NCBI RefSeq assembly: GCF_022879595.1
Contig: NZ_CP084267.1
Span: forward strand, 496,001 to 560,000
DNA: 64,000 bases
Direction of reading: 5' to 3'
Source: Caballeronia sp. Lep1P3
GTDB taxonomy: Bacteria; Pseudomonadota; Gammaproteobacteria; Burkholderiales; Burkholderiaceae
Made by a program: the position numbers and the translations under genes
Part shown: positions 30,147-47,422 of the stretch, one piece after another
Numbering within the stretch: the first letter of the stretch is position 1
Layout of the letters: every line of letters begins with the position of its first letter
Notes under the pieces: generated by a model
What the model saw: the letters and a program-made list of their open reading frames with translations, nothing else
What the model was told of the DNA's origin: nothing
Databases searched by the model: none

Positions 30147-30230
30147 GTAAGCGACTCGGCACGACCGTATCTCAGTGCTGAATATTTCGACGCATGATAG
30201 GCGCGTTCAGCTTGACGGAGACAGTCAGCC

Positions 30231-30650
30231 ATGTCGAACGCAGCGGGCCGTACGCATCCCCATCGCACGTATGCGCAAGAATTTAAGCAGCAGGTGATCA
30301 GGGAGACATTGGAACCCGGCATGTCGGTGTCGATCGTTGCGCGACGGCACGACATCAACGCCAATGTGGTGTTCGCATGGCGCAAGCAATACCGTGAAGG
30401 CAAGCTGGTCATTCCTGCACTCGAAGCTGCGCCGAGCGTGCCCAGCACGAAGCTGCTGAGCGTCGACGTGATCGACTCGGCATTGGTACTTCGACCGCCT
30501 GAGTCGTCAATGGCGTCGCAAGCGACGAGCGGCGTACCGATGCCGGCGCCCGTGTGCGAAATCGAGGTGGAAATCGGCAAACGGCGTGTGAGGATTCGCG
30601 GCCTGTCTGCCGAGCGCGCTGAAGCGTTTCTGCAGGAATGCCTGAAGTGA
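30231..30650 (+). CDS. tnpA: IS66 accessory protein TnpA (outer copy)
   Basis: The 139-residue protein has the N-terminal HTH of IS66 OrfA proteins: YAQEFKQQVIRETLEPGMSVSIVAR, with the stretch after VIRETL most typical, and NANVVFAWRKQYREG. A C-terminal EIEVEIGKRRVRIRGLS follows. It is needed together with TnpB and TnpC for transposition of the IS66 family. It overlaps tnpB by 13 bases. Confidence 0.9.
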   Translation: MSNAAGRTHPHRTYAQEFKQQVIRETLEPGMSVSIVARRHDINANVVFAWRKQYREGKLVIPALEAAPSVPSTKLLSVDVIDSALVLRPPESSMASQATSGVPMPAPVCEIEVEIGKRRVRIRGLSAERAEAFLQECLK

Positions 30651-30991
30651 TCGCGCTGCCGGCAGGTACGCGCGTTTGGCTCGTGGCCGGCGTGACAGAT
30701 ATGCGCTGCGGCTTCCAGGGGCTGGCCGCGAAAGTGCAGACGGCGCTCGAAGAGAATCCGCTGGGCGGCAACGTATTTATCTTCCGCGGCCGCCGCGGCG
30801 ATCTCGTGAAGCTGCTTTGGGCGACCGACGATGGGCTCTGGCTGCTCGCAAAACGATTGGAGCGAGGCCGGTTTATCTGGCCCCAGGCCGACGGTGGAAA
30901 AATCCATCTGTCGAGCGCACAGCTGTCGATGCTCCTCGAAGGCATCGACTGGCGACACCCGCAACGCACCGCTGCTCTGTCGATGTTGTAA
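30638..30991 (+). CDS. tnpB: IS66 accessory protein TnpB (outer copy)
   Basis: The 117-residue protein is the conserved IS66 Orf2: TDMRCGFQGLAAKVQ, FIFRGRRGDLVKLLWATDDGLWLL and a C-terminal LSMLLEGIDWR. Its biochemical role is unknown, but it is required for IS66 transposition. The start overlaps tnpA; tnpC follows after 30 bases. Confidence 0.92.
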   Translation: MPEVIALPAGTRVWLVAGVTDMRCGFQGLAAKVQTALEENPLGGNVFIFRGRRGDLVKLLWATDDGLWLLAKRLERGRFIWPQADGGKIHLSSAQLSMLLEGIDWRHPQRTAALSML

Positions 30992-31021
30992 ACCACATCG
31001 AAGGCTCGTAAACTGCGACGC

Positions 31022-32557
31022 ATGTCCCAATCTGCGCCGCTTCCCACCACCGTCGCGGAGCTCCAGGCTCTGGTGCTCGAGCAGCAGGCGTCGATCGAGA
31101 ACATGGTGCGGGAGATCGCCGCACGGGACGACCAAATCGAACGCCTGAAGGCGCAGATCGACAAGCTCAGGCGGATGTACTTCGGGAGCAAGTCCGAGAA
31201 ACTGGCCCGGCAGATCGATAAACTCGAGGCGCAGTTGGAAGACCTGACGGCCGGTCAGGGCGCTGTCGAGACGCGAAAGCACCAACAGAAGACATCGACG
31301 GCGCCGCCCGGTCGAGCGCCCACGCGAGAGCCGCTGCCGCCGCACTTGCCACGCGATGAAATCGAACTCACGCCGAATCCGGCTTGCCCCAAGTGTGCGA
31401 CAACGATGCAGCGACTCGGCGAGGATGTCTCCGAGCAGCTCGCGCGCGTGGCGGCTGCGTTTAAAGTGATCCGCACGATCCGTCACAAGCTGTGCTGTCC
31501 TGACTGCGGCCACATCGAACAGCCCGCGATGCCCAGCCTGCCCATCGAGCACAGCATCGCGCATCCGAGCCTGCTGGCCGACATTGCGGTATCGAAGTTC
31601 GCAGATCACCAACCGCTGTACCGCCAATCGGAGATTGCGGCACGCGACGGCGTCACGTTGGATCGGGCCAGTATGGGCCGCTGGATCGGGCAGATCGCCG
31701 AGCTCTGCGGACCGCTTGTTGAAGCAATCCAGCGCTACGTGCTGGTCCCCGGCAAGGTACACGTCGACGACACACCGGTTGCGGTGCTCGCGCCAGGCAA
31801 CGGAAAGACGGTGACCGGTCGCTTCTGGGTCTATGTGCGTGACGATCACCGCTCGGGCTCGACTGAGCCGGCTGCGGTATGGTTCGACTTCTCCTCAAAT
31901 CGCAAAGGCGTCCATCCTCAGACCCGACTCGCCGCATTCCGCGGCATCCTGCAGGCCGATGCATACGCCGGTTTCGATCAACTGTATGCGAGCGGCGAGA
32001 TCCACGAAGCGGCATGCTGGGATCACGCGAGGCGGTACATTTACGATGTTCACGCGCGCACACCGACTTCAGATACCCAGCAACTGCTCGAGATGATCGG
32101 CGAACTCTACAACATCGAAGCCGACATCCGCGGCAAGGCGCCTGACGAGCGTCTGCGCTTCAGGCAGGAAAAGAGCAAGCCGTTGCTCGCGAAGCTCGAA
32201 GAGACGATCAGGGTGAAACTCGCGACGCTATCGACGAAGTCCGCGCTCGCAAAAGCAATCAACTACTCGCTGAACCATTGGGCGGCGCTCGTGTTCTACT
32301 GCGAGGACGGTCGAGTCGAGATCAGCAACGTGCTTGCCGAGAATGCGCTGCGCTGTGTCGCGCTCGGACGCAAGAACTATCTGTTCGTCGGCTCCGACAG
32401 CGGGGGCGAGCGAGCCGCCGCGATGTATAGCTTAATCGGGTCGGCAAAGCTCAACGGGATCAACCCGCGTGCCTATCTGGAATACGTCCTGACCCATATC
32501 GCTGATCACAAGATCTCACGCATCGACGAATTGCTGCCTTGGAACGTGGCAGACTGA
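31022..32557 (+). CDS. tnpC: IS66 transposase TnpC, 3' end cut by an IS3 insertion
   Basis: The 511-residue DDE transposase has an N-terminal coiled coil ([20 protein letters not shown]), a zinc-type C..C..C..C block ([22 protein letters not shown]) and the catalytic segment beginning [11 protein letters not shown]. The stop TGA at 32555-32557 belongs to the inserted IS3 element, whose first bases are TGA. Removing that element and one GAC target copy joins codon 511 to AAACTGAAG at 33928. The frame then runs 13 more codons to TAG 33967-33969, giving 524 residues. Whether the shortened protein still works is unknown. Confidence 0.9.
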
Positions 32558-32607
32558 GATTGACCCGCCAAAACGGACACCTATCCTTTGGAAAAGGGGG
32601 TGCCAAA

Positions 32608-32922
32608 ATGGGCAAGCATCGAGCACCGTACCCGGCGGAGTTCCGGGCTCACATAGTCGAGCTGGTGAAGGCGGGGCGAACACCCGAGGAGCTTGCGCGA
32701 GAGTTCGAGCCTAGTGTGCAGACGATAATCAACTGGGTGGCGCAGGCGGATATTGACGCCGGCGTGCGTCAGGAGGGGTTGACCACGGCTGAGCGCCAAG
32801 AGCTCTCCCGTTTGCGCCGCGAGAATCGGCAATTAAAGACGGAGCGCGACATTCTCTCTCACGCCGCAGCCTGGTTCGCCCGCGAGACAGGAGCCGTGTC
32901 CTCGAAGGATACGGATTCATGA
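32608..32922 (+). CDS. IS3-family OrfA, HTH protein
   Basis: From ATG 32608, with AAAAGGGGG upstream, the protein is 104 residues. It has the transposase HTH PAEFRAHIVELVKAGRTPEE and a C-terminal leucine-zipper-like helix (LRRENRQLKTERDIL). In IS3 elements it fuses to OrfB by a -1 frameshift to form the active transposase. Its end overlaps orfB by four bases. Confidence 0.92.
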   Translation: MGKHRAPYPAEFRAHIVELVKAGRTPEELAREFEPSVQTIINWVAQADIDAGVRQEGLTTAERQELSRLRRENRQLKTERDILSHAAAWFARETGAVSSKDTDS

Positions 32923-33890
32923 GAGCAAACCAGGCCCGTTGGCCCATTGCTACGATGGCGCGGCTGCTGGGAGTCTCGACCAGCGGTTACTACGCGTGGC
33001 TGGTGCGGGAGCCATCAAGGCGGTCACGTAGCGATGCTCAGCTACTGACGCGCATTCGTACGCTGTATGCGAGTTCGCGAGGTACGTATGGGGCGCCGCG
33101 CATCCATGCGCAACTTGCGCGCGAGGGAGTGCACGTGGGACGCAAGCGAGTCGCGCGCCTGATGCGCATCGCGGACCTACGGGGAGCAAGCCGACGGCGC
33201 TGGCCCCGTACAACGCGCCAGCGTGCGGGGGCACGGCGTGCGCCGGACCTCGTGCGCCGGCACTTCAATGCTGAAGGGCCCAACATACTGTGGGTCGCAG
33301 ATGCCACCTACATTCCGACGACAGAAGGCTTTCTCTATCTGGCCGTGGTGCTTGATGTCTTCAGCCGGCGCATCGTCGGCTGGGCAATGTCGAACCACTT
33401 GTACACCGAACTGATGTTGCGCGCGCTCGACATGGCCCTCCAGCAGCGACGTCATGAGGGTGTGATTTTGCATTCCGACCAGGGGGCCCAATACACATCC
33501 ATTGCCTTTGGAAAACGCTGCCGCGAAGCCGGCGTGCAACCGTCGATGGGTACAGCCGGCGACGCGTACGACAATGCGATGTGCGAATCCTTCTTTGGGA
33601 CGCTTGAAGCAGAGCTCCTGGCGCGCGAACACTTCGCGACCCATGAACAAGCACGGAGGCGCATCTTCTCCTTCTTGGAAGGCTGGTACAACGTACGCCG
33701 CCTGCATAGCAGCATCGGCTATTGTTCACCGCTCGAATTCGAAAACCTGAGCGCGAAGACAAAAACCGCATCACCCTGCGAGTTGCCCACCGACGGGCAG
33801 CGTCGCGGTCGTGAGAAGCGACCCGCTGCCCATCCGTGGACAACCCGCAACTCAACGCTTAACGGAGGCCGGGCCACGACAAATCTTTAA
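32919..33890 (+). CDS. IS3-family OrfB, DDE transposase
   Basis: The 323-residue protein has an N-terminal HTH_21 region (RIRTLYASSRGTYGAPRIHA) and an rve integrase core. The DDE residues are in WVADATYIP, LHSDQGAQY and NAMCESFFGTLEAELL. All are present and the frame is intact, so this element may still be active. The stop is followed by 34 bases to the right inverted repeat. Confidence 0.93.
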   Translation: MRANQARWPIATMARLLGVSTSGYYAWLVREPSRRSRSDAQLLTRIRTLYASSRGTYGAPRIHAQLAREGVHVGRKRVARLMRIADLRGASRRRWPRTTRQRAGARRAPDLVRRHFNAEGPNILWVADATYIPTTEGFLYLAVVLDVFSRRIVGWAMSNHLYTELMLRALDMALQQRRHEGVILHSDQGAQYTSIAFGKRCREAGVQPSMGTAGDAYDNAMCESFFGTLEAELLAREHFATHEQARRRIFSFLEGWYNVRRLHSSIGYCSPLEFENLSAKTKTASPCELPTDGQRRGREKRPAAHPWTTRNSTLNGGRATTNL

Positions 33891-34071
33891 CTGCAAATCT
33901 GTCCGTCGGAGCGGGTCAATCTCAGACAAACTGAAGCCGGCCACTCCGCCTACACCCTTAACCGGGTAGATCTGGACAGATTTGCGTGGATCGTGTCCAC
34001 GATTGCCCCCGGCGTCACACTAGTTGTCGCCTCTGAATTTTCATCATTTGAAGAGAACTCAGAGGTGCAGG

Positions 34072-34569
34072 TTGAAGACGAAACAGACGTATTCTGTAGA
34101 CTTCAGAGAGCAGGCGCTGGCGAAGGCCCTGCAACGCGGCAACCGCTCCGTAGGAGCGGTTGCCGCGGAACTGAACATGAATGTATTAACCTTGAGGAAA
34201 TGGATCCGGGTGTCTAACGCCGCAAGCCGCAATCCGGGCCCGAGCGATGCACGGCGCCCACAAGACTGGTCTCTGGAAGAGCGCCTGCTGGCCTTGCAAC
34301 AGAGCCATGGACTGGATGAGGAAGCACTGAACGCGTGGTGTCGCGAACGGGGCCTGTTTGTCCATCATCTGGCCCAGTGGCGTGCGCAGTTCTGCTCTGG
34401 CGACACCGTGAGCCCACGCGCCAACGCGCCGGAAGTGCGCGATCTCAAACAGGCCAATGCGCAATTGCAGCGCGAACTCAAGCGTAAGGACAAGGCTCTG
34501 GCGGAAGCGGCTGCGTTGCTGGTGCTCTCAAAAAAGTATCAGGCGCTGTTCGGGGACGAGGACGAATGA
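34072..34569 (+). CDS. IS3-type OrfA, copy 1
   Basis: TTG 34072 is the likely start because AGAGG lies just before it; this gives 165 residues. It has two HTH-like halves: YSVDFREQALAKALQRGNRS and EEALNAWCRERGLFVHHLAQW. The last third is a basic coiled coil (DLKQANAQLQRELKRKDKAL). Copy 2 at 46102 has the same layout but clearly diverged residues. It overlaps orfB by four bases. Confidence 0.85.
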   Translation: MKTKQTYSVDFREQALAKALQRGNRSVGAVAAELNMNVLTLRKWIRVSNAASRNPGPSDARRPQDWSLEERLLALQQSHGLDEEALNAWCRERGLFVHHLAQWRAQFCSGDTVSPRANAPEVRDLKQANAQLQRELKRKDKALAEAAALLVLSKKYQALFGDEDE

Positions 34570-35039
34570 CTTCTGCCGAACAGCGCGCGACATTGAAGGC
34601 TCTGATCGACGAGGCCATCGCAGCCGGGGCTCGCCAGGCACGTGCGTGCGCGATGCTGGGGCTGAGCGCGCGCACCGTGCAGCGCTGGCAAGGCGCCGGT
34701 CCTGAAGCGGTGGACGGGCGCACCTTGCGCCGCCATGAGCCTGCCCACAAGCTGTCGGCCGATGAACGCGCCGAACTGCTGGCGGTGGCCAACTCTGCTG
34801 AATTCGCTCATCTGCCACCGAGCCAGATCGTGCCACGACTGGCCGACCAGCAACGCTACATTGCCTCGGAATCGACGTTTTACCGGGTGCTGCGCGAAGC
34901 GAACCAGCTCGCCCACCGGCGCAGCGAACGGCCGACCCGCGCACGCAGCAAACCGCGCGCAGTCTGCGCCGACGCGCCGAACCAGCTGTATTCCTGGGAC
35001 ATTACTTACCTGCCGGCGACGATTCGTGGACAGTTTTTT
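34566..35039 (+). pseudogene. IS3-type OrfB copy 1, 5' part (split by IS66)
   Basis: The first 158 codons of the transposase, with an HTH (QARACAMLGLSARTVQRWQ) and the first catalytic Asp in SWDITYLP. The frame then enters the inner IS66 at 35040 and stops at 35100-35102 after 20 foreign residues. The rest lies at 37671-38276. Joining them after removing the IS66 and one target copy restores 359 residues, exactly the length of the intact homologue at 45026-46105, so the insertion caused no other damage. Confidence 0.92.
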
Positions 35040-35120
35040 GTAAGCGCGAATTTATGCGCACATAGCGTCTGGGTTCGGAGCAAGGCAAGCTGCGTCCACT
35101 GATATTCTGTGGACACACCC

Positions 35121-35609
35121 ATGACTCAAACAGGTCCAGATACGGCGCTTCTCGCCGTTACCCTAGTCGGGCGCGACGGCAAGCGTCGCTACGACTCCCA
35201 ATCCAAACTTAGGCTCATCGAGGCCTGCCTGCAACCTGGTGTTTCAGTGGCCGGATTGGCGCTCAAAGCCGGCGTCAACGCGAATCTGCTGCGCCGATGG
35301 ATCAAGCTGCATGAGCAACGCCGCCGCGCCGCGGGGGCGCCGGATATTGTCGATGATGCGACGACACTCGCCGTGCCGTCGGCATTTGTGATGGTCCGCG
35401 AGGCTGGCCGCAGTGGGGTCGTTGAGCGGACCAGCATCTCAAAGCCCGACTCCGAGCCTGTGGGCACAAATCCGGCCTTGCGCTCGCAACTGACGGTGGA
35501 GATGCCCAACGGAGTGACGCTGCGGCTGGACTGCACAGCCGGCGATGCGTCGCTGGTATCGGCCATGATCGAGAGTCTGGGACGCTGCGATGTTCAGACT
35601 CGACGCTAG
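35121..35609 (+). CDS. tnpA: IS66 accessory protein TnpA (inner copy)
   Basis: From ATG 35121 it is 162 residues; GTG 35109 is an alternative start. It has the OrfA-type HTH (YDSQSKLRLIEACLQPGVSV, NANLLRRWIKLHEQRR) and a C-terminal VEMPNGVTLRLDCTAGD. It is longer than the outer-element TnpA and its middle part differs. The end overlaps tnpB by 20 bases. Confidence 0.88.
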   Translation: MTQTGPDTALLAVTLVGRDGKRRYDSQSKLRLIEACLQPGVSVAGLALKAGVNANLLRRWIKLHEQRRRAAGAPDIVDDATTLAVPSAFVMVREAGRSGVVERTSISKPDSEPVGTNPALRSQLTVEMPNGVTLRLDCTAGDASLVSAMIESLGRCDVQTRR

Positions 35610-35940
35610 ACTCAAGGTGTATGTTCATCGCGAAGCCGTCGATTTCAGGAAGTCGATCAACGGACTCGCCGCCCTGGTAGAACAGGCAGGGCTGGACCCG
35701 TTTGCGCCAGCGCTATTCGCGTTCAGCAACCAGCGCCACAATCGCATTAAGTTGCTTGGCTGGGACGGCAACGGCTTCTGGCTGATGATGAAGCGTCTCG
35801 AAGAAGACCGCTTCGCCTGGCCACGCCGGCAGCAGGCCGTGATGGAATTGACCGCCGAGCAACTGCACTGGTTGCTTGAGGGGATTGATATCGACGCAGT
35901 ACGTCGTCATCCTGCGCGACAGTATCGACACACGGGTTGA
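35590..35940 (+). CDS. tnpB: IS66 accessory protein TnpB (inner copy)
   Basis: The 116-residue protein has the conserved IS66 Orf2 sequence: DFRKSINGLAALVEQ, FAFSNQRHNRIKLLGWDGNGFWLMMKRL (the RIKLLGWDGNGFWL core is typical) and LHWLLEGIDI at the end. It starts within the last 20 bases of tnpA. A gap of 82 bases separates it from tnpC. Confidence 0.93.
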   Translation: MFRLDARLKVYVHREAVDFRKSINGLAALVEQAGLDPFAPALFAFSNQRHNRIKLLGWDGNGFWLMMKRLEEDRFAWPRRQQAVMELTAEQLHWLLEGIDIDAVRRHPARQYRHTG

Positions 35941-36022
35941 CGCATCCGTGACCCTTGAACTGGCCTCGTCGTTACAACTTCCGTAAACCCACGCGCCCGG
36001 CGATTTCGCTAAGGTAAGGGTC

Positions 36023-37609
36023 ATGTCAGCCCCCGATTCCACCGCCGGTCTGCCGCCCGAAGTGCTCGCCTACATCCGCGAGCTCGAGGCAAGCAACCGG
36101 GACTTGAAGGCACGCGTCGAGCAACTCGAGGAGCTGTTTCGCCTCGCGCAACTCAAGCGCTTCGCGCCGAGCAGCGAGAAGCTCAAGGATCGCGTGTTCG
36201 ACGAAGCCGAGCAGGTCGCCGCGGTGGAACCTGTCGAAGACGATCCGGACGGTGTCTTCGCGTTGCCCGCCACCAGCCTGCCTGCCGTGGATGCTCCACC
36301 CCATCAGAAGCGCGGTCGCAAACCACTGCCCGCCGATCTGCCCCGCACCCGTATCGAATACGACCTGCCCGAAGACCAAAAGGTCTGCCCGTGCTGCAAG
36401 GGCGCGATGCACCGGATGGGCGAGCAGACCTGTGAGCAGTTGCATATCGAGCTCAAGGCATCGGTATTGCAACACGTGCGCTTCAAATATGCGTGTCGCC
36501 ATTGCGAGCGCCACGCCGAACATACGCCGGTTGTGATCGCTTCCATGCCGACGCAGCCGCTGCCAGGAAGCAACGCGAGCCCGGCAATGATCGCTACGGT
36601 GATGACGGCCAAATACGCGGACGGCACACCGCTGTATCGCATGGAAGAGGCGCTGACTCGCTCGAACATTGCGGTCAGTCGCGGTACGCTGGCACACTGG
36701 ATTATCCGTCCCGCCGAGCTGCACCTGTCCCGTCTGTATGAAGCGATGCGCAGAACACTGCTTGCGCAGTCCCTGCTTCATGGCGACGAGACGACAGTGC
36801 AGGTGCTCAAGGAAGACGGCAAGACAGCGCAGAGCAAGTCGTACATGTGGGTGTATCGCAGCGCCAAAGACAGTACCGAACCGGTCGTGCTGTTCGAATA
36901 TCAGCCAGGACGCGGGCAGCAATATCCGCAGGCCTTTCTGGGCGGCTACGCCGGAACGCTGATGACCGACGGGTACAGTGCGTGGCGCACGCTGGAAGGT
37001 GTGACCCATCTCGGATGCATGGCTCACGCGCGCCGCGGGTTTGATGAGGCGTACAAGGCTCACAGGAAACCCGACGGCCGCGCACGCAAGGCGCTCGAAT
37101 ACTTCAAGGCGCTTTACCAGGTTGAGACCCTCGCACGCGGCGTACTGCCCGAAGGTCGAAGCCGTGCCGAGCACACGTATGAGTTGCGCCAGGCGCACAG
37201 CGTGCCTCTGCTGGAGGCGTTCAAAATCTGGCTCGATGAACAGGCGTCGCAAGTGCTGCCTGAAAGTCTGACCGGCAAGGCTATCAGCTACACACGCAAT
37301 CAGTGGGCATACCTGCGACGCTATGTCGATGATGGGGTCTCACCCATCGACAACAATCTGCTCGAGCGCGACATCCGCCCATTTACGACCGGAAGAAAGG
37401 CATGGCTGTTCAGCGACACAGTCGCTGGCGCGAAGGCCAGTGCGATCATCTACAGCTTGATGCTGACGTGCCGTGCATGCGGAGTCGAGCCGTATGCCTA
37501 TCTGCTGCGCGTGCTGACCGAGCTGCCGCAGCGCTCAGCGGATGCCGATATCCGGGACCTGCTCCCATTCAACTTCACGAAGCGGAACGACGAATCCGCG
37601 TCAACGTGA
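36023..37609 (+). CDS. tnpC: IS66 transposase TnpC (inner copy)
   Basis: The 528-residue protein is a full-length IS66 DDE transposase. It has an N-terminal coiled coil (IRELEASNRDLKARVEQLEE), a zinc-type block (KVCPCCKGAMHRMG, YACRHCERHAEH), the catalytic start LLHGDETTVQVL and a late SPIDNNLLERDIRPFTTGRK containing the final acidic residue. All motifs are intact. GTAAGGG before the start serves as a weak ribosome-binding site. Confidence 0.95.
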   Translation: MSAPDSTAGLPPEVLAYIRELEASNRDLKARVEQLEELFRLAQLKRFAPSSEKLKDRVFDEAEQVAAVEPVEDDPDGVFALPATSLPAVDAPPHQKRGRKPLPADLPRTRIEYDLPEDQKVCPCCKGAMHRMGEQTCEQLHIELKASVLQHVRFKYACRHCERHAEHTPVVIASMPTQPLPGSNASPAMIATVMTAKYADGTPLYRMEEALTRSNIAVSRGTLAHWIIRPAELHLSRLYEAMRRTLLAQSLLHGDETTVQVLKEDGKTAQSKSYMWVYRSAKDSTEPVVLFEYQPGRGQQYPQAFLGGYAGTLMTDGYSAWRTLEGVTHLGCMAHARRGFDEAYKAHRKPDGRARKALEYFKALYQVETLARGVLPEGRSRAEHTYELRQAHSVPLLEAFKIWLDEQASQVLPESLTGKAISYTRNQWAYLRRYVDDGVSPIDNNLLERDIRPFTTGRKAWLFSDTVAGAKASAIIYSLMLTCRACGVEPYAYLLRVLTELPQRSADADIRDLLPFNFTKRNDESAST

Positions 37610-37670
37610 TCGAGCGCAGATTATTCAGTGGTCCGCCGTGGTGCGTGTTAATTCGCGCTTACAGTTTTTT

Positions 37671-38276
37671 TATCTGTATCTGTTTCTCGATGTCTTCAGC
37701 CGAAAGATTGTCGGCTGGCAGGTCTATGCCGAGGAAAGCAGCGCGCTGGCCAGCGAAGTCCTCAGAGACCTTTGCGCACGCGAATCGATACAGCCCGAAC
37801 AGGTGATCCTGCACTCCGATAACGGCGGCCCGATGAAAGGCGCGACGATGCTCGCTACCCTCCAGGCGCTGGGCGTCATGCCGTCGCTCAGTCGCCCCGG
37901 CGTGAGCAACGACAACCCCTATTCCGAGTCGCTTTTCAAGACCCTGAAGTACCGGCCTGCCTATCCTCTCAAGGCGTTCGATACCCTGTTCGCCGCGCGC
38001 ACCTGGGTGGGCGCGCTGGTGCGCTGGTACAACGAGGAGCATCGACACAGCGCGATCCGGTTCGTGACGCCGGCGCAGCGTCATGCCAACCTCGATCAGG
38101 ACATTTTGCTTCGACGCACTGCGCTTTACCAGGCGGCAAGGCAGCGCAATCCGCTCCGATGGAAAGGCCCCACCCGCAACTGGCAGCGCGTTGACACCGT
38201 GCATCTGAATCCCGATCGCATCGATAACCCGGGCGTCACACTACAACGTCGCAAGCAGGAGAGAAAAGCCGCCTGA
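37671..38276 (+). pseudogene. IS3-type OrfB copy 1, 3' part
   Basis: These 201 codons plus stop continue the transposase begun at 34566: YLYLFLDVFSRKIVGWQV, the second catalytic Asp in LHSDNGGP and the final Glu in NPYSESLFKTLKY. An open frame from 37542 reads in from the inner IS66 and does not represent a native start. Alone, this part lacks the first catalytic Asp and the DNA-binding region, so it cannot be active. Confidence 0.92.
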
Positions 38277-38426
38277 TATTTATTCGTTGAGGCGACAACT
38301 AGCTTGAAAATTTCCGATTGCCGATCATGGGCACGATCCCCGTGATCTATACGAATTCCACCACGACAGCACCATCATGCCTCACGCGCGCGCGAATGAG
38401 GAACTGGCCCAGCCGAGTCGCTTACT

Positions 38427-38819
38427 CAGCAGGAGAAACCCGAAGACTTCGTCATTGCGACCGGCGTCCAATACAGCGTGCGGGAGTTCGTTCAGCGCGC
38501 CGCGATCGAACTGGGCATCGAAGTGCGCTTCGAAGGCAGCGGCGCGAACGAGGTCGGGATCGTGCATCGTGTTCATGACAGTCAGCACCGCATCGCGCCG
38601 GGAACGGTCATCGTGCGGGTCGATCCGCGCTATTACCGTCCGACCGAAGTGGAGACGTTGCTGGGCGATCCGTCCAAGGCGCATGTCAAGCTCGGCTGGA
38701 CACCGTCGATCAGCTTCAACGCACTAGTCAGGGAAATGGTGCTGGCGGATTATCAGCTTGCCAAACGGGATGCGCTTGTGACGCTGGCCGGATATCGCGC
38801 GCTGCAACACCATGAATAG
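38427..38819 (+). pseudogene. gmd: GDP-mannose 4,6-dehydratase, 3' remnant
   Basis: The fragment starts two bases after the outer IS66 end and continues in one frame to TGA near 38817-38819. [20 protein letters not shown] and [20 protein letters not shown] are hallmark C-terminal motifs of GMD, which makes GDP-4-keto-6-deoxymannose. About 130 residues remain of a family length near 345, so the Rossmann part with TGxxGxxG and the catalytic YxxxK is gone. No 5' part was found left of the IS66 or elsewhere in the window. The gene is therefore deleted, not merely interrupted. Confidence 0.92.
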
Positions 38820-38875
38820 TGCGAGCGAAGGGGAGTTCAGATCAAAGGCGGTACAGACTCTTTCGAGGAGCCGGC

Positions 38876-40111
38876 ATGATCGTGTTCATTGCACCGTACA
38901 GCGCCGCGAGGCGCGGGAGCAATCGGAACCTCGGCGCCACGCGCAAGATCGAGTTCTTTCTGGCGATGGCCGCGCGCATGACGAGCAACGTCGTGCTCGT
39001 GAACACGCTGCATGAGAGTACGAAGTGGGTGCCGCGTGAAGTTCGCAAATGCACGGTCGGCAATGTACGAATTCGCGAAATTGCACTCCGTCGCTATCCC
39101 GTGCGCATCCTCGGTAAGTTTCTGAACCTGCTCGAAGTCGATGCAGTGAGTCGTGAAGTAGCGCAGTTTGGCCGGCCAGACGCAGTATGGATCTATAACG
39201 CTTACGCGTTCGAGGTGATGCTTGCGCGCGCACTGACGCGCGATTTCGGCGCGCGACTCATCTTCCAGTTCGATGACTGGATGCTAGCGCGTCGTTCCTT
39301 GCATCCAAAACCGCTGATCGACTTTCTCGCCTGGCGTTATCTGCTTCCGCCGCCTTCGGTGTGCCTGGCGGTGAACGATCATGTCGCGGCTCGCGAGCAT
39401 GAGCGTAGCGGCCGTCCAGTGTTGCCGTGCCCGGGCGTGGTCTCCAATGAACTGGTCGCCGCCTGCGCGGGACGTCAGCCATTCCAGAAGCCCGATTCCG
39501 GGCGAACGGTCGTAGGCTATTTCGGCGGCTTGTGGCCTGAGAAAGGCGCTGATCTCGTGCTCGAACTCGTGAAACGATCGAGCGGACGCTTTCTCTTCCA
39601 CGTCTGCGGCAACGGCCCGCTCGCCGATGCATTCGCAGAAGTCAGTCGATTATCCGGCGATGTGCGCTTTCATGGACAGGTGGACGATGCGACGCTGTTC
39701 GATCTGATCGCGGAGTGCGACGTTCTTGTCAATGTGCACGCGTCCATCGAAAAGATGGGCAACGGGGTCTTTCCGTTCAAGGTCGTTGAGTATGTCGCGT
39801 CAGGCCGGCTCGTGATATCCACCGATCTCCCGCCGATGAGCTTGCACGATGTGATAGAAGCGGTGCACTTCGTTGCGCCTCGCGTCGAATCGATTCAGGA
39901 TGCGCTGTCCGACGCACCACACCTTTACGCGGTCAAGCGACAGAAGATCGAGAAGGCGATGGCCGTGACGCGCGATATGCTGTCCGCGAACGCGCTCGAA
40001 CATGCCATCACCTCTATGCTCTTCGGTCCGCAACCATCGCCGGATGAACGCGCCGACGACGCCGATGCTGTCAAGCCAAACTCCAATCGCGAGGAACATC
40101 GACATGCCTGA
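38876..40111 (+). CDS. GT4-type glycosyltransferase
   Basis: From ATG 38876, with GAGGAG just before, the protein is 411 residues. N-terminal FIAPYSAARRGSNRNLGATRK with the GSNRNLG loop suits the acceptor side. The C-terminal GT-B half shows VGYFGGLWPEKGADLVLELV, VRFHGQVDDATLFDLIAECD and the sugar-nucleotide block VFPFKVVEYVASGR. It transfers a sugar in the cytoplasm during repeat-unit assembly. The frame is open to 38819, but the ribosome-binding site favours 38876. Confidence 0.88.
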   Translation: MIVFIAPYSAARRGSNRNLGATRKIEFFLAMAARMTSNVVLVNTLHESTKWVPREVRKCTVGNVRIREIALRRYPVRILGKFLNLLEVDAVSREVAQFGRPDAVWIYNAYAFEVMLARALTRDFGARLIFQFDDWMLARRSLHPKPLIDFLAWRYLLPPPSVCLAVNDHVAAREHERSGRPVLPCPGVVSNELVAACAGRQPFQKPDSGRTVVGYFGGLWPEKGADLVLELVKRSSGRFLFHVCGNGPLADAFAEVSRLSGDVRFHGQVDDATLFDLIAECDVLVNVHASIEKMGNGVFPFKVVEYVASGRLVISTDLPPMSLHDVIEAVHFVAPRVESIQDALSDAPHLYAVKRQKIEKAMAVTRDMLSANALEHAITSMLFGPQPSPDERADDADAVKPNSNREEHRHA

Positions 40112-43318: not shown

Positions 43319-44089
43319 TTAGCCTTCTTTCGTTTTCTGCGCAAGCGCCTCGGCAGCTTCCTTGAGCCTGTAGCTGCGACCATTGAATTCGAGGAGGTGG
43401 CAATGATGCATAAGGCGGTCAAGGATCGTGGTGCTCATCGTGTTGTCGCCAAGATAGGCGCCCCAGTCCTGTACGACGCGATTGGAGGTGACCACCACGC
43501 TTCGACGCAACTTGTAGCGCTGATGGATCAGGGTCTGCAATAGTGCGCCGGCGTCGTCGGGGATCGTACGTGAGAGGAACAGGTCGTCGAGCACGAGCAG
43601 GTCGCAATCGAGAATGGCACGCAGCCGCGCCTGCCGTTGTTCCTGCGCACTCAGCGCATAACGGTTGAAGAAGTCATCGGTCTCGAGATACTGCACCTTG
43701 TGCCCGTGGAGGACGGCCTGATATGCGACGGCCTTCGCCACGTGCGACTTGCCGGTGCCAGGCTTGCCGACAATTAAACCGTTTTCGCCAGCGGCGATGA
43801 ACTTCAGTGCGTGTAGCTGGAAGCAGGCTTGGCGAGGCAGCTTTGGATTGAACGACCAGTCGAATTCCGTCAGGGTAAGCCTCTCCTCGAGACCCGATTG
43901 CTGGTAGCGACGCTCGATGAGGCGCGACTGTCGCCGGTCGAGTTCGTCCTGCAGAATCAGCGCGAAGGTCTCCAGAAATGGTTGCTGGCTCCCTTGGGCC
44001 TGCAGCACGCGTGTCTCGAGCGTGTCGCGTACGCCTGACAGACGCAATAGCCTTAGCGCGCGTTCGATGTCCGGTAAGGTGGTGGTCAT
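43319..44089 (-). CDS. istB: IS21 helper ATPase IstB
   Basis: The 256-residue protein is an AAA+ ATPase: Walker A GLIVGKPGTGKSHVAKAVAY and Walker B LLVLDDLFLS, followed by the sensor region RRSVVVTSNRV. IstB assembles on DNA and activates the IstA transposase. ATG 44089 overlaps the istA stop by four bases (ATGA), the usual arrangement. The gene itself is intact. Confidence 0.95.
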   Translation of the reverse strand: MTTTLPDIERALRLLRLSGVRDTLETRVLQAQGSQQPFLETFALILQDELDRRQSRLIERRYQQSGLEERLTLTEFDWSFNPKLPRQACFQLHALKFIAAGENGLIVGKPGTGKSHVAKAVAYQAVLHGHKVQYLETDDFFNRYALSAQEQRQARLRAILDCDLLVLDDLFLSRTIPDDAGALLQTLIHQRYKLRRSVVVTSNRVVQDWGAYLGDNTMSTTILDRLMHHCHLLEFNGRSYRLKEAAEALAQKTKEG

Positions 44090-44980
44090 ACGGTTTCTCC
44101 CGTCGTGGAGGATCGAGATGTGGCGCTGTGCTGCGCGCCGGCGTCGAAGAGCTCGCTGTATTCGGTTGCGGGCCGGATCAACGGGTGCTCCTGGGTGAGC
44201 GGCAAGGCGAGTTGGGGCGCCCGATCGAGGCGCTCAAGTGCCTGTTCGAACAGCCGTTCGACAACGGTGCGCACCTGCCGGTAGCGATACAGGTGATGAT
44301 GCAGCGCGTGGTCGCAGGCTTGCTCGACGAGCCAGGCGGGATACTTCTTCGCCAGCGCGACGATGCCCCACATGCCGCGATGTCCGACGCGTCCTTCGGC
44401 GTCGAACAGATGCTGGCAAAGTGCCTTCGTTTGTGGGCCGATGTCGCCGGCGCTAGCGAGCGCCAGGCTCGTCTGGCGCGACGGATTGAACGGTCGCTCG
44501 CTCTCGGGCAATTCGAGTGAACCGGGCTGCGTGTGGCGTGGATGGGTGCGCAGCAACTCCTGAGTGCGCCGGTCGCGGATCTCAATCGTGGTGTCGTAGA
44601 TGCGCACGCTGACGAGGCTGCCGATGGGCGCAGGGCGCGCCGCATAGTTGCTGCGCTCGATACTTACTGTGGTGTCGTCCCAGACGGTGCGTACGACTTC
44701 GGTGAAGTAGCGGAACGCGGTGGCCGGCAGCGGCCGCAGATGTGGCTTCTCCTCCTGGAACATCGCTTCGACCTGCCGCCGCGCTCTGCCGTGGATGCGC
44801 CTGGCTGCCCAGTTCTCCTCCCAATGCATAAGGAATTCGTTCTGAGCTTCGAGTGATTCGAAACGCCGGCCGGTGAGCGCGGTGTTCTGCGTGTGTTGGA
44901 TCGCGTTCTCTACGGTGCCCTTTCGATTCGGGTCTCGTACGCGAGCAGGGTCGGCCACGACGCCGTAATGCTCAAGCATC
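44086..44980 (-). pseudogene. istA: IS21 transposase IstA, 3' part
   Basis: This is the C-terminal 297 codons, beginning MLEHYGVVADPARVRDPNRK. It includes the final catalytic Glu region (NRKGTVENAIQHTQ) and the C-terminal DNA-binding part. It is separated from the first part by IS3-type copy 2. The join after removal restores the typical IstA sequence NRLYAA-MLEHYGVVAD and a total of 550 residues. An ATG at 44979 could start an isolated fragment, but this would lack the first catalytic residues. Confidence 0.92.
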
Positions 44981-45025
44981 GCCGCACGGAAATTTTCAAG
45001 CTAGTTGTCGCCTCAACGAATAATT

Positions 45026-46105
45026 TCAGGCTGCCTTTCTCTCCTGGTTAGGGCGTCGTGGGGTACCGCCCTGGTTATCGATTCGATCCGGGTTCAGGTG
45101 CACAGCATCGACGCGTTGCCAGTTGCGCGTTGGGCCTTTCCACCGAAGCGGATTGCGTTGCCGGGCGTACTCGTAGAGCGCCGCGCGTCGATCCAGAATG
45201 TCCTGATCGAGGTTGGCATGACGCTGCGCCGGCGTGACGAACCGGATCGCGCTGTGACGATGCTCCTCGTTGTACCAGCGCACCAGTGCGCCCACCCACG
45301 TGCGCGCGGCAAACAGGGTATCGAATGCCTTGAGCGGATAAGCAGGTCGATACTTTAGGGTCTTGAACAACGACTCGGAGTAAGGGTTGTCGTTGCTCAC
45401 GCCCGGGCGACTCAGCGACGGCATGACGCCCAGCGCCTGAAGGGTGGCAAGCATCGTCGCGCCTTTCATCGGGCCGCCGTTGTCCGAATGCAAAATCACC
45501 TGGGCGGGCTGTATCGCTTCGCGCGCGCAGAGGTCCTTGAGGACTTCGCTGGCCAGCACGCTGCTTTCCTCGGCATACACCTGCCAGCCGACAATTTTGC
45601 GACTGAACACGTCGAGAAACAGATACAAGTAGAAGTACTGCCCACGAACCGTGGTCGGCAGATACGTGATGTCCCAGCTATACAATTGGTTCGGTGCATC
45701 GGCGCAAACCGAACGGGGTTTGCTGCGTGCCTGTGCCGGCCGTTCGCTGCGCCGGTGTGCGAGTTGCTTCTCGGCCTTCAGGACCCGGTAGAACGTCGAT
45801 TCGGAGGCGATATAGCGTTGCTGGTCTGCCAGTCGAGGCACGATCTGGCTTGGCGGCAGATGACCGAATTCGGGCGAGTTCGCGATCGCCAGAAGCTCGG
45901 CGCGTTCGTCGGCAGAGAGCTTGTGACGCGGCGCGTGATGCCGTAACGAGCGCCCGTCCACCGCGTCAGGTTCGCCGCGCTGCCAGCGCTGAACCGTTCG
46001 AGCACTGAGCCCTAGAATGCTGCACGCACGCGCCTGGCGAGCCCCGGCCAGGGTCGCCTCGCTGATCAGGTCGATCAATGCCTTGCGCTCTTCAGGGACC
46101 GTCAT
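45026..46105 (-). CDS. IS3-type OrfB transposase, copy 2 (intact)
   Basis: The 359-residue protein has an N-terminal HTH (QARACSILGLSARTVQRWQ) and an integrase core with the DDE residues in SWDITYLP, LHSDNGGP and NPYSESLFKTLKY. It is the intact reference for the split copy at 34566-38276; many residues differ between the two, most in the first 120. It overlaps orfA by four bases. Confidence 0.94.
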   Translation of the reverse strand: MTVPEERKALIDLISEATLAGARQARACSILGLSARTVQRWQRGEPDAVDGRSLRHHAPRHKLSADERAELLAIANSPEFGHLPPSQIVPRLADQQRYIASESTFYRVLKAEKQLAHRRSERPAQARSKPRSVCADAPNQLYSWDITYLPTTVRGQYFYLYLFLDVFSRKIVGWQVYAEESSVLASEVLKDLCAREAIQPAQVILHSDNGGPMKGATMLATLQALGVMPSLSRPGVSNDNPYSESLFKTLKYRPAYPLKAFDTLFAARTWVGALVRWYNEEHRHSAIRFVTPAQRHANLDQDILDRRAALYEYARQRNPLRWKGPTRNWQRVDAVHLNPDRIDNQGGTPRRPNQERKAA

Positions 46106-46602
46106 TCGGCCTCGCCCCCGAACAGCGCACGGTGCTTTTTTTGCAGCACCAACAGCGCCGCAGCTTCAGCCAGCGCCTTCTCCTTGCGTTTGAGTTCGCG
46201 CTGCAGCTCGAAATTGGCCTGCTTCAGATCCCGGACTTCCGTGGCGCTCTCGCGCCGACTACCGGTTCCACCGACCGTGCAAAAATCCGCTCGCCACTGC
46301 GCGAGATGATGTGCGAACAGGCCGCGCTCGCGACACCAGCTGTTCAACGCTTCGTCGACCAACCCGTGGCTCTCCTGCAAGGCCATCAGCCGTTCTTCCA
46401 GCGACCAGTCTTCCGGACGTCTTGCGTGTTCGGAGCCCGAGCTCCGCTTCGCGGCGGCGGCGCCTCTCATCCACTTCCTTAACGTCAGTACGTTCACGTT
46501 CAATTCGTCGGCCACTGCTCCAACCGTTCGGGGGCCGCGCTGCAGGACCTTCGACAGCGCCTGTTCCTTAAATTCAACAGAATACGTTTGTTTCGCCTTC
46601 AC
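46102..46602 (-). CDS. IS3-type OrfA, copy 2
   Basis: From GTG 46602, with AGAGG upstream, the protein is 166 residues. It has the HTH YSVEFKEQALSKVLQRGPRT, a second helix-rich block (DEALNSWCRERGLFAHHLAQW) and the coiled-coil end DLKQANFELQRELKRKEKAL. The open frame continues to 46647. Compared with copy 1, substitutions are spread all along, most in the middle linker, so the copies diverged before they came to this locus. Confidence 0.9.
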   Translation of the reverse strand: MKAKQTYSVEFKEQALSKVLQRGPRTVGAVADELNVNVLTLRKWMRGAAAAKRSSGSEHARRPEDWSLEERLMALQESHGLVDEALNSWCRERGLFAHHLAQWRADFCTVGGTGSRRESATEVRDLKQANFELQRELKRKEKALAEAAALLVLQKKHRALFGGEAE

Positions 46603-46664
46603 CCTGTACCTCTGACTCTTCTCGATAAGAAAGTTCAGAGGCGACAACTAGTCTGACGCCGGGG

Positions 46665-47422
46665 GCCGCATAGAGCCGGTTCAGCTCCGGCTCATATAGG
46701 TCGGGGGTGATGACACCTTCCCGGAGGTTATCGAGGACGACGTAACTCACGCTGCCACCGAAGTACCGGAAGGCGTCCTCATGTAGTTGCGCCCAAACCT
46801 GCTTGCTCGACTTCCAGACCACTTGCCGGAAGCTGCGCCGCGAATAGCGTAGCGTCATGACGAACAAGCGCGGGCGCCGATACCGGCCCGTCCTCGGATC
46901 ACGCGTCGGCGCGCCCTCACCATAATCGACTTGAGCTTCCTCAGCCGGAGCAAACTCGAGGCGGTCAAACTGCTCGGGATCGACGTGCCGGAGGGCGCGC
47001 ACAAAGCGTTTGACGCTGTCGTAGCTCGCAGTAAAGCCGAACTGGTCGACCAGATCCTGGTAAATCGCTTGGGCATTGCGCTTCAAGCGTATCTGCTGCT
47101 CAATCCACTCGCGATAGGGTTCGCTGGCGGAACGGGCGAAATTGAACGGTTTGACCGGTGCGACGATCCGAGAAGCCGGCGGGCGCGAAAGTGAAGGAGT
47201 TTGCGGTGGAGGAATTTGCGCGCCCACCGGCTCCGCCATGCCGGCGGGCGCGGGGGTGGAGGAATTTGCGTCGCCCGTGACTCGCTGCGATTCAAAGATC
47301 GACTGATAGCGGCGGATCGTCTTGCGGTCGATCCCCGTGACCTCGTGGATCTTGCGCTGACTTGCCCCGCGTTCGAGCAGCGTGAATATCGTGGCTTGGA
47401 GATGCTGCTTCAAGACGTTCAC
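46665..47422 (-). pseudogene. istA: IS21 transposase IstA, 5' part
   Basis: The first 252 codons contain an HTH (LLERGASQRKIHEVTGIDRK) and the first half of the integrase core (EEAQVDYGEGAP with the first Asp, YVVLDNLREGVITPDLYEPE with the second). The frame then runs into IS3-type copy 2. A Pro/Ala/Ser-rich linker near residues 50-75 is encoded by extra copies of the IS21 terminal repeat (47191-47270). It joins the part at 44086-44980. Confidence 0.92.
47191..47270. repeat. Terminal-type IS21 repeats inside istA coding DNA
   Basis: GTGAAGGAGTTTGCG (47191-47205), GTGGAGGAATTTGCG (47206-47220) and GTGGAGGAATTTGCG again (47256-47270) match the repeat at the IS21 right end (47505 and 47531). 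Two are in tandem. They code for the IstA linker. Confidence 0.85.

What the first reader, a model, noticed from the sequence alone, without database searches (positions are those of the whole stretch)
30147..38425. Four insertion sequences nested up to three levels deep
Borders, target duplications and frames show the order. An outer IS66 took an IS3 element in its last tnpC codons (GAC duplication) and an unrelated IS3-type element in its tail (ATTGC duplication). That second element later took an inner IS66 (AGTTTTTT duplication). Each step removes cleanly and restores the host frame: tnpC to 524 codons and orfB to 359 codons. A complete readable history of three nested levels is uncommon.
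Basis: seen in the sequence. Interest (0 to 1): 0.75.

Follow-up and report, generated by a model that had tools for sequence, protein, structure and literature searches.

The report
Transposons nested inside transposons, three deep
Four ordinary bacterial jumping elements sit inside one another as described, but the same genome holds other such nests, so this is a clear piece of local history rather than a new kind of thing.

Summary
An IS66-type element (30147-38425) holds two separate IS3-type insertions; the second holds another IS66-type element: four elements, three levels. Natural uninterrupted relatives confirm the inner steps: a same-genus genome has the outer element whole (524-codon tnpC), a Caballeronia grimmiae plasmid has both IS3 sites empty, and Paraburkholderia PGU19 has the second IS3 element with an unbroken 359-codon orfB. 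No relative among 57 same-genus genomes showed the inner junctions tested (capped candidate lists).

Corrections: (1) The outer edge is not readable. The outer element has no 8-bp duplication (ACTATGTC / TCAGCAGG) and abuts a gmd gene lacking about 240 codons, so sequence was lost or rearranged there. (2) Nesting does not order the two IS3 insertions. (3) The second duplication is 4 bp (ATTG) or 5 bp (ATTGC). (4) Nesting is not uncommon here: contig C6 of the same genome holds another IS66-IS3-IS66 nest, 6 of 23 mapped C6 insertions lie inside another element (17% expected, p=0.19), and this window holds another IS-in-IS pair. Ordinary and well documented; low interest.

The parts
30147..38425 (+). 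Outer IS66-family element (level 1), 8279 bp with its passengers; own sequence 30147-32554, 33925 to 34005/34006, and 38317-38425, apart from duplicated bases
   Evidence: 14/14 bp terminal inverted repeats; 96% relative in G069 and 88% in a B. ubonensis plasmid
30231..30650 (+). outer tnpA
   Evidence: PF01527 E 1.8e-16
30638..30991 (+). outer tnpB
   Evidence: TnpB_IS66 E 3.3e-37; NF033819 114.9 bits against cut-off 50
31022..32557 (+). outer tnpC, 511 codons as it stands; the remaining codons of the natural 524-codon gene lie beyond IS3a
   Evidence: NF033517 429.2 bits against cut-off 180; 524-codon relative in L077
32555..33924 (+). IS3a, IS3-family element (level 2), target duplication GAC
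   Evidence: four further copies at 100% over 1370 bp on C6 and one at 95.8% on C1
32608..32922 (+). IS3a orfA
   Evidence: PF01527 E 6.3e-10
32919..33890 (+). IS3a orfB transposase
   Evidence: NF033516 336.2 bits against cut-off 160
34006..38316 (+). IS3b, IS3-type element (level 2), target duplication ATTG (or start at 34007 with ATTGC)
   Evidence: Borders compared with 10 other copies; empty site in L048; PGU19 copy without the inner IS66
34024..34569 (+). IS3b orfA
   Evidence: PF01527 E 3.9e-12
34566..35039 (+). IS3b orfB, 5' part (interrupted by the inner IS66)
   Evidence: unbroken 359-codon orfB in L045
35040..37662 (+). Inner IS66-family element (level 3), 2623 bp, target duplication AGTTTTTT
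   Evidence: three further full copies in the genome, each with its own 8-bp duplication
35109..35609 (+). inner tnpA
   Evidence: PF01527 E 1.1e-09
35590..35940 (+). inner tnpB
   Evidence: NF033819 115.1 bits against cut-off 50
36023..37609 (+). inner tnpC, 528 codons
   Evidence: NF033517 432.1 bits against cut-off 180
37663..38276 (+). IS3b orfB, 3' part (begins with the second copy of AGTTTTTT)
   Evidence: NF033516 130.1 bits for the ORF 37542-38276 that contains it; matches L045
38426..38819 (+). gmd (GDP-mannose 4,6-dehydratase) remnant abutting the outer element; homology begins at about residue 241 of 372

Best explanation
This is a pile-up of ordinary insertion sequences. An IS66-type element landed in or near a polysaccharide gene cluster of a bacterium inferred to be a Caballeronia. 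Later two different IS3-type elements inserted into it, one in the last codons of tnpC and one in the tail behind tnpC. An IS66-type element of another subtype then inserted into orfB of the second IS3 element. Each inner insertion copied a short target stretch (3 bp, 4-5 bp, 8 bp). The outer element's own duplication is missing because DNA next to it was deleted or rearranged, and the first 240 or so codons of gmd are gone. Shown: borders, terminal repeats, inner duplications, natural empty sites, missing gmd part. Inferred: independent, untargeted landing on a dispensable target, and deletion or recombination at the outer edge.
For: Terminal repeats and duplications. Natural uninterrupted alleles of outer tnpC (524 codons) and IS3b orfB (359 codons); both IS3 sites empty in L048. 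Probes across the left border of each inner element matched whole only in the own genome among 58 (57 relatives; 11 best candidates per genome scored); the two rows that ran furthest past the IS3a border in relatives were read and are not the junction. IS3a has four 100% copies on C6 and the inner IS66 has one 100% full-length copy there, so both were active recently. A gmd search of the own genome found the remnant (residues 241-372 only), one full-length paralogue on C1 (73% identical to the remnant over 113 residues) and four distant matches at 28-31%, so the front part of this copy is not elsewhere. Nesting on C6 fits random landing: 6 of 23 insertions against a 17% target share, p=0.19.
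Against: The outer element fails the 8-bp duplication test at its present flanks. No orthologous empty chromosomal site was found: the left flank matched none of 30 relatives, so the outer breakpoint is not reconstructed. The C6 test covers only the element types mapped here, and leaves out one truncated outer copy and four fragments. Independence and lack of targeting are inferred.
Confidence: 0.93

Rival explanations
1. The nest assembled elsewhere, for example on the IS-rich contig C6, and the outer element, which still has both ends and a TnpC with its recognised domains, carried the passengers here as one 8.3-kb unit, or the unit arrived by recombination.
For: Outer terminal repeats are perfect and the 511-residue TnpC keeps the DDE and C-terminal domains. 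C6 holds 99.4-99.5% fragments of the same outer element. IS3a and the inner IS66 have 100% copies on C6.
Against: No 8-bp duplication flanks the unit. No second place with the inner junctions was seen in this genome or 57 relatives, within the scored candidates. The C6 outer copy is broken by other elements at other places.
Confidence: 0.1
2. Assembly misjoin between repeats.
For: IS3a and the inner IS66 have near-identical copies elsewhere, and the outer element and IS3b have fragments or relatives.
Against: Each inner insertion has a proper target duplication, and the interrupted sequences agree with natural uninterrupted alleles on both sides. IS3b has no near-identical partner in the genome (best 85%).
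Confidence: 0.03
3. The nest reflects a preference of IS66 elements for landing in IS3 elements.
For: On C6 two IS66c copies and one inner-type IS66 sit in IS3c copies, and in the window the inner IS66 sits in IS3b.
Against: Nesting on C6 does not clearly exceed random expectation (p=0.19); the insertion points within the IS3 elements differ. With 23 insertions a modest preference would be missed.
Confidence: 0.07

Closest known systems
IS66-family element on Burkholderia ubonensis plasmid pMSMB2035 (NZ_CP013415)
   Same: Same tnpA-tnpB-tnpC layout; 88% identical to the first 2408 bases of the outer element; same type of ends
   Different: Uninterrupted, 2613 bp between ends, with a perfect 8-bp duplication GGCAACGC
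Whole outer-type IS66 in unnamed same-genus genome G069 (L077)
   Same: 96% identical over 2407 of 2408 bases compared; tnpC of 524 codons
   Different: 2592 bp, no passengers, 8-bp duplication CGGCACCA; its letters at the two IS3 sites differ from the nest's by a base or so
IS3-family element on Paraburkholderia sp. PGU19 plasmid PPGU19_p3 (NZ_AP023183)
   Same: 98.8% and 97.7% identical to the left and right parts of IS3b
   Different: Not interrupted by an IS66 element; orfB is 359 codons; duplication CGAT
Second IS66-IS3-IS66 nest at C6:182194-187985 of the same genome
   Same: Pieces of the same outer IS66 (99.4-99.5%), an IS3b-type element in it (duplication TTGT) and an IS66-type element in that (duplication GTTTGTTT)
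   Different: IS3c and IS66c are other subtypes; insertion points differ; only positions 506-2008 of the outer element are present
Nested IS in Lactobacillus delbrueckii ssp. lactis (PMC4082628, one passage read)
   Same: Reports 4 cases of nested IS, and hotspots with two or three IS close together or nested
   Different: Other IS families; the cases named are one IS inside another

Membership tests
IS66 family (outer element) | tnpA, tnpB and tnpC of the IS66 type | tested here: met
   TnpB and TnpC above NCBIfam cut-offs, TnpA hits PF01527
IS66 family (outer element) | 8-bp target duplication (recalled as typical; the table row of PMC3281130 seen gives 8 for two IS66 elements in a column I take to be repeat length, header not seen) | tested here: not met
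   ACTATGTC / TCAGCAGG. Two intact relatives have it and the right flank is truncated gmd, so I read this as later loss at the flank
IS66 family (inner element) | IS66-type tnpA-B-C, inverted ends, 8-bp duplication | tested here: met
IS3 family (IS3a) | orfA plus orfB with rve/DDE domain above the IS3 cut-off, inverted ends, short duplication | tested here: met
   NF033516 336.2 against 160; TGAGATTGACCCG ends; GAC
IS3 family (IS3b) | orfB above the IS3 family cut-off | tested here: inconclusive
   The two pieces, taken apart, score 54.1 and 130.1 against 160; the uninterrupted IS3c relative in this window scores 194.8 and the PGU19 copy is annotated IS3 family
IS3 family (both) | Programmed frameshift joining orfA and orfB (recalled) | not testable with these tools
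   orfA and orfB overlap by 4 bases in both elements; frameshifting needs an experiment

The most novel reading that the evidence does not exclude
The 8.3-kb nest is still a mobile unit: outer TnpA, TnpB and the 511-residue TnpC could act on the intact outer ends and carry three passenger insertion sequences, a 'transposon of transposons' grown by nesting behind tnpC.
Probability: 0.08. Interest if true: 0.35.

Novelty: new member of a known kind. Interest (0 to 1): 0.15.

Why it matters
It gives a clean relative chronology for one locus (outer before IS3a; outer before IS3b before inner) and marks a breakpoint where gmd, a polysaccharide gene, lost its front part. Otherwise it is one well-documented example of insertion-sequence pile-up in an IS-rich multi-replicon genome; it opens no long-standing question.

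Tried and rejected
Outer 8-bp duplication: looked for, absent. Front part of this gmd elsewhere in the genome, which would have shown a recombination partner: not found. Left flank in relatives: only the own genome among 31 searched. The tail of the outer element in L048 and at C6:130609 continues differently after ...GTCGCT; this did not help with the outer breakpoint. IS66-into-IS3 preference: not above chance on C6. Literature: 'nested insertion sequences' with IS66 gave 0 papers and a three-term search gave 0; six other searches gave listings from which I opened six papers for passages only. One passage on nested IS (PMC4082628) and one table row (PMC3281130) were used; PMC9208149, PMC2246112, PMC11677980 and PMC7392541 gave nothing used. 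No paper was read whole.

The names IS3a, IS3b, IS3c, IS66c and unkX are my own labels; no ISfinder comparison was possible. Rows dropped before counts: IS3b matches under 95% and inner-IS66 matches under 80%, matches under 90% identity or 60 bases, one truncated outer copy and four fragments were kept as targets but not counted as insertions.

Full report
What is there. The stretch 30147-38425 is bounded by perfect 14-bp inverted repeats, GTAAGCGACTCGGC. It holds IS66-type tnpA, tnpB and tnpC. At 32555-33924 an IS3-family element (IS3a) interrupts the end of tnpC with a GAC duplication. At 34006/34007-38316 a second IS3-type element (IS3b) lies in the tail behind tnpC; the flanks share CGATTGCC. 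At 35040-37662 a second IS66-type element, of another subtype, lies in orfB of IS3b with an AGTTTTTT duplication.

Borders from other copies. Seven IS3a copies were lined up: the nest's, four on C6, one on C1 and one from Caballeronia sp. NK8. Five, the nest's included (with L006, L007, L010, L044), show 3-bp duplications; L008 shows 4 bp (GTTG) and L009 shows 8 bp (CCGTGGTC). For the IS3b type 11 copies were lined up, the nest's included. Five show a 4-5 bp duplication (window, L014, L015, L018, L045); six show none (L016, L017, L019, L020, L021, L022). Two further C6 copies, each carrying other insertions, show TTGT and ACTT. So the nest's duplication is best read as ATTG with a border at 34006; ATTGC with 34007 is equally possible. 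Five copies of the inner IS66 type were lined up, one of them an 82% relative from P. fungorum; all five have 8-bp duplications.

Natural empty sites. C. grimmiae plasmid p4 (L048) carries the end of tnpC and the tail without either IS3 element, with one GAC and one CGATTGCC; the match is 367 bp and starts late in tnpC. An unnamed same-genus genome (G069, L077) has the whole outer element at 96%, 2592 bp, with a 524-codon tnpC and the 8-bp duplication CGGCACCA. B. ubonensis has it at 88%, 2613 bp, with GGCAACGC. PGU19 has IS3b with a 359-codon orfB. The predicted frames thus exist in nature; nothing was spliced to show them.

Junctions in relatives. Probes of 401 bases were run on 58 same-genus genomes, the own one included; the 11 best candidates per genome were scored. 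IS3a right border and IS3b left border: 14 of 58 genomes had a match to some part; only the own genome matched the whole probe; 7 rows in 6 other genomes match the outer tail just between the two borders, that is, without these IS3 elements beside it. IS3b-inner: 9 of 58 had a match; only the own genome matched the whole. Outer-IS3a: 31 of 58 had a match; only the own genome matched the whole. Rows in two relatives that ran 13 bases (G041) and 7 bases (G018) past the IS3a border were read; what lies upstream is unrelated to outer tnpC. Several relatives are drafts of hundreds of contigs, where such repeats often fall at contig ends, so absence is weaker there.

The outer edge. The 8 bases before the outer element are ACTATGTC and after it TCAGCAGG; 1 of 8 positions agrees. 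The right flank is gmd from about residue 241 of 372. Of four relative loci found with the neighbouring glycosyltransferase, three (L049, L050, L051) have gmd about 1.4 kb upstream of it and one (L052) has no gmd match. In L050 a 472-aa ORF lies between them, absent here, where the two are about 60 bp apart. The front of this gmd copy is not elsewhere in the genome: the search gave the remnant, a full-length paralogue on C1 and four distant matches; the paralogue is 73% identical to the remnant over 113 residues. So at least one side of the outer element's original site is gone. An adjacent deletion and a recombination between copies both fit; I cannot choose. This is the main correction to 'a complete readable history'. 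Copies without duplications are common here (six of eleven IS3b-type copies).

Order. Nesting fixes outer before IS3a, and outer before IS3b before inner. IS3a against IS3b is not fixed. IS3a is 100% identical to four C6 copies and the inner IS66 to one, while IS3b's best in-genome relative is 85%; this hints at recent activity of IS3a and the inner element but proves nothing about order.

How unusual. On C6, of 23 two-ended insertions of the element types mapped, 6 lie inside another listed element; the target share is 17%, one-sided binomial p=0.19. One stack is IS66-IS3-IS66 again, C6:182194-187985, with TTGT and GTTTGTTT. In the window itself an IS3c copy at 44987-46665 with a CCGCA duplication splits an IS21 transposase gene. 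Nested IS are in print for Lactobacillus delbrueckii (PMC4082628, passage). The nest is what random landing in an IS-rich genome can give; I did not measure how often three-level nests occur across bacteria.

Host. Contigs of genome G011, placed by the tool in the same genus, match at the same coordinates as Caballeronia sp. NK8 plasmids NZ_AP024326 and NZ_AP024328, so I infer the genus Caballeronia. The genome itself is unnamed.

Noticed in passing
window 43319-47422: An IS3c copy (44987-46665, minus strand) with a CCGCA duplication splits the transposase gene of an IS21-family element; istB is at 43319-44089.
   Followed up: partly
G000 C6:102294-103663 (L009): An IS3a copy inside IS3c is flanked by an 8-bp direct repeat CCGTGGTC, although five of the seven IS3a copies lined up have 3-bp duplications. 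Unexplained.
   Followed up: no
G000 C6:87412-94829: Fragments of the inner-type IS66 flank an IS3c copy that itself carries an IS66c and a whole inner-type IS66; the middle of the flanking IS66 is missing.
   Followed up: partly
L048:4001-4390 and G000 C6:130609-130671: In C. grimmiae p4 and on C6 the tail of the outer IS66 continues after ...GTCGCT into the same other sequence, GATATGACTTTCCGTGTCAA, which suggests a shared ancestral junction.
   Followed up: no
window 38426-40111: The gmd remnant and the glycosyltransferase are about 60 bp apart; in relative L050 a 472-aa ORF lies between the two genes.
   Followed up: partly
G000 contig C6 (202 kb): 35% of the contig lies in repeats of at least 300 bp and 95% identity within the contig.
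   Followed up: partly
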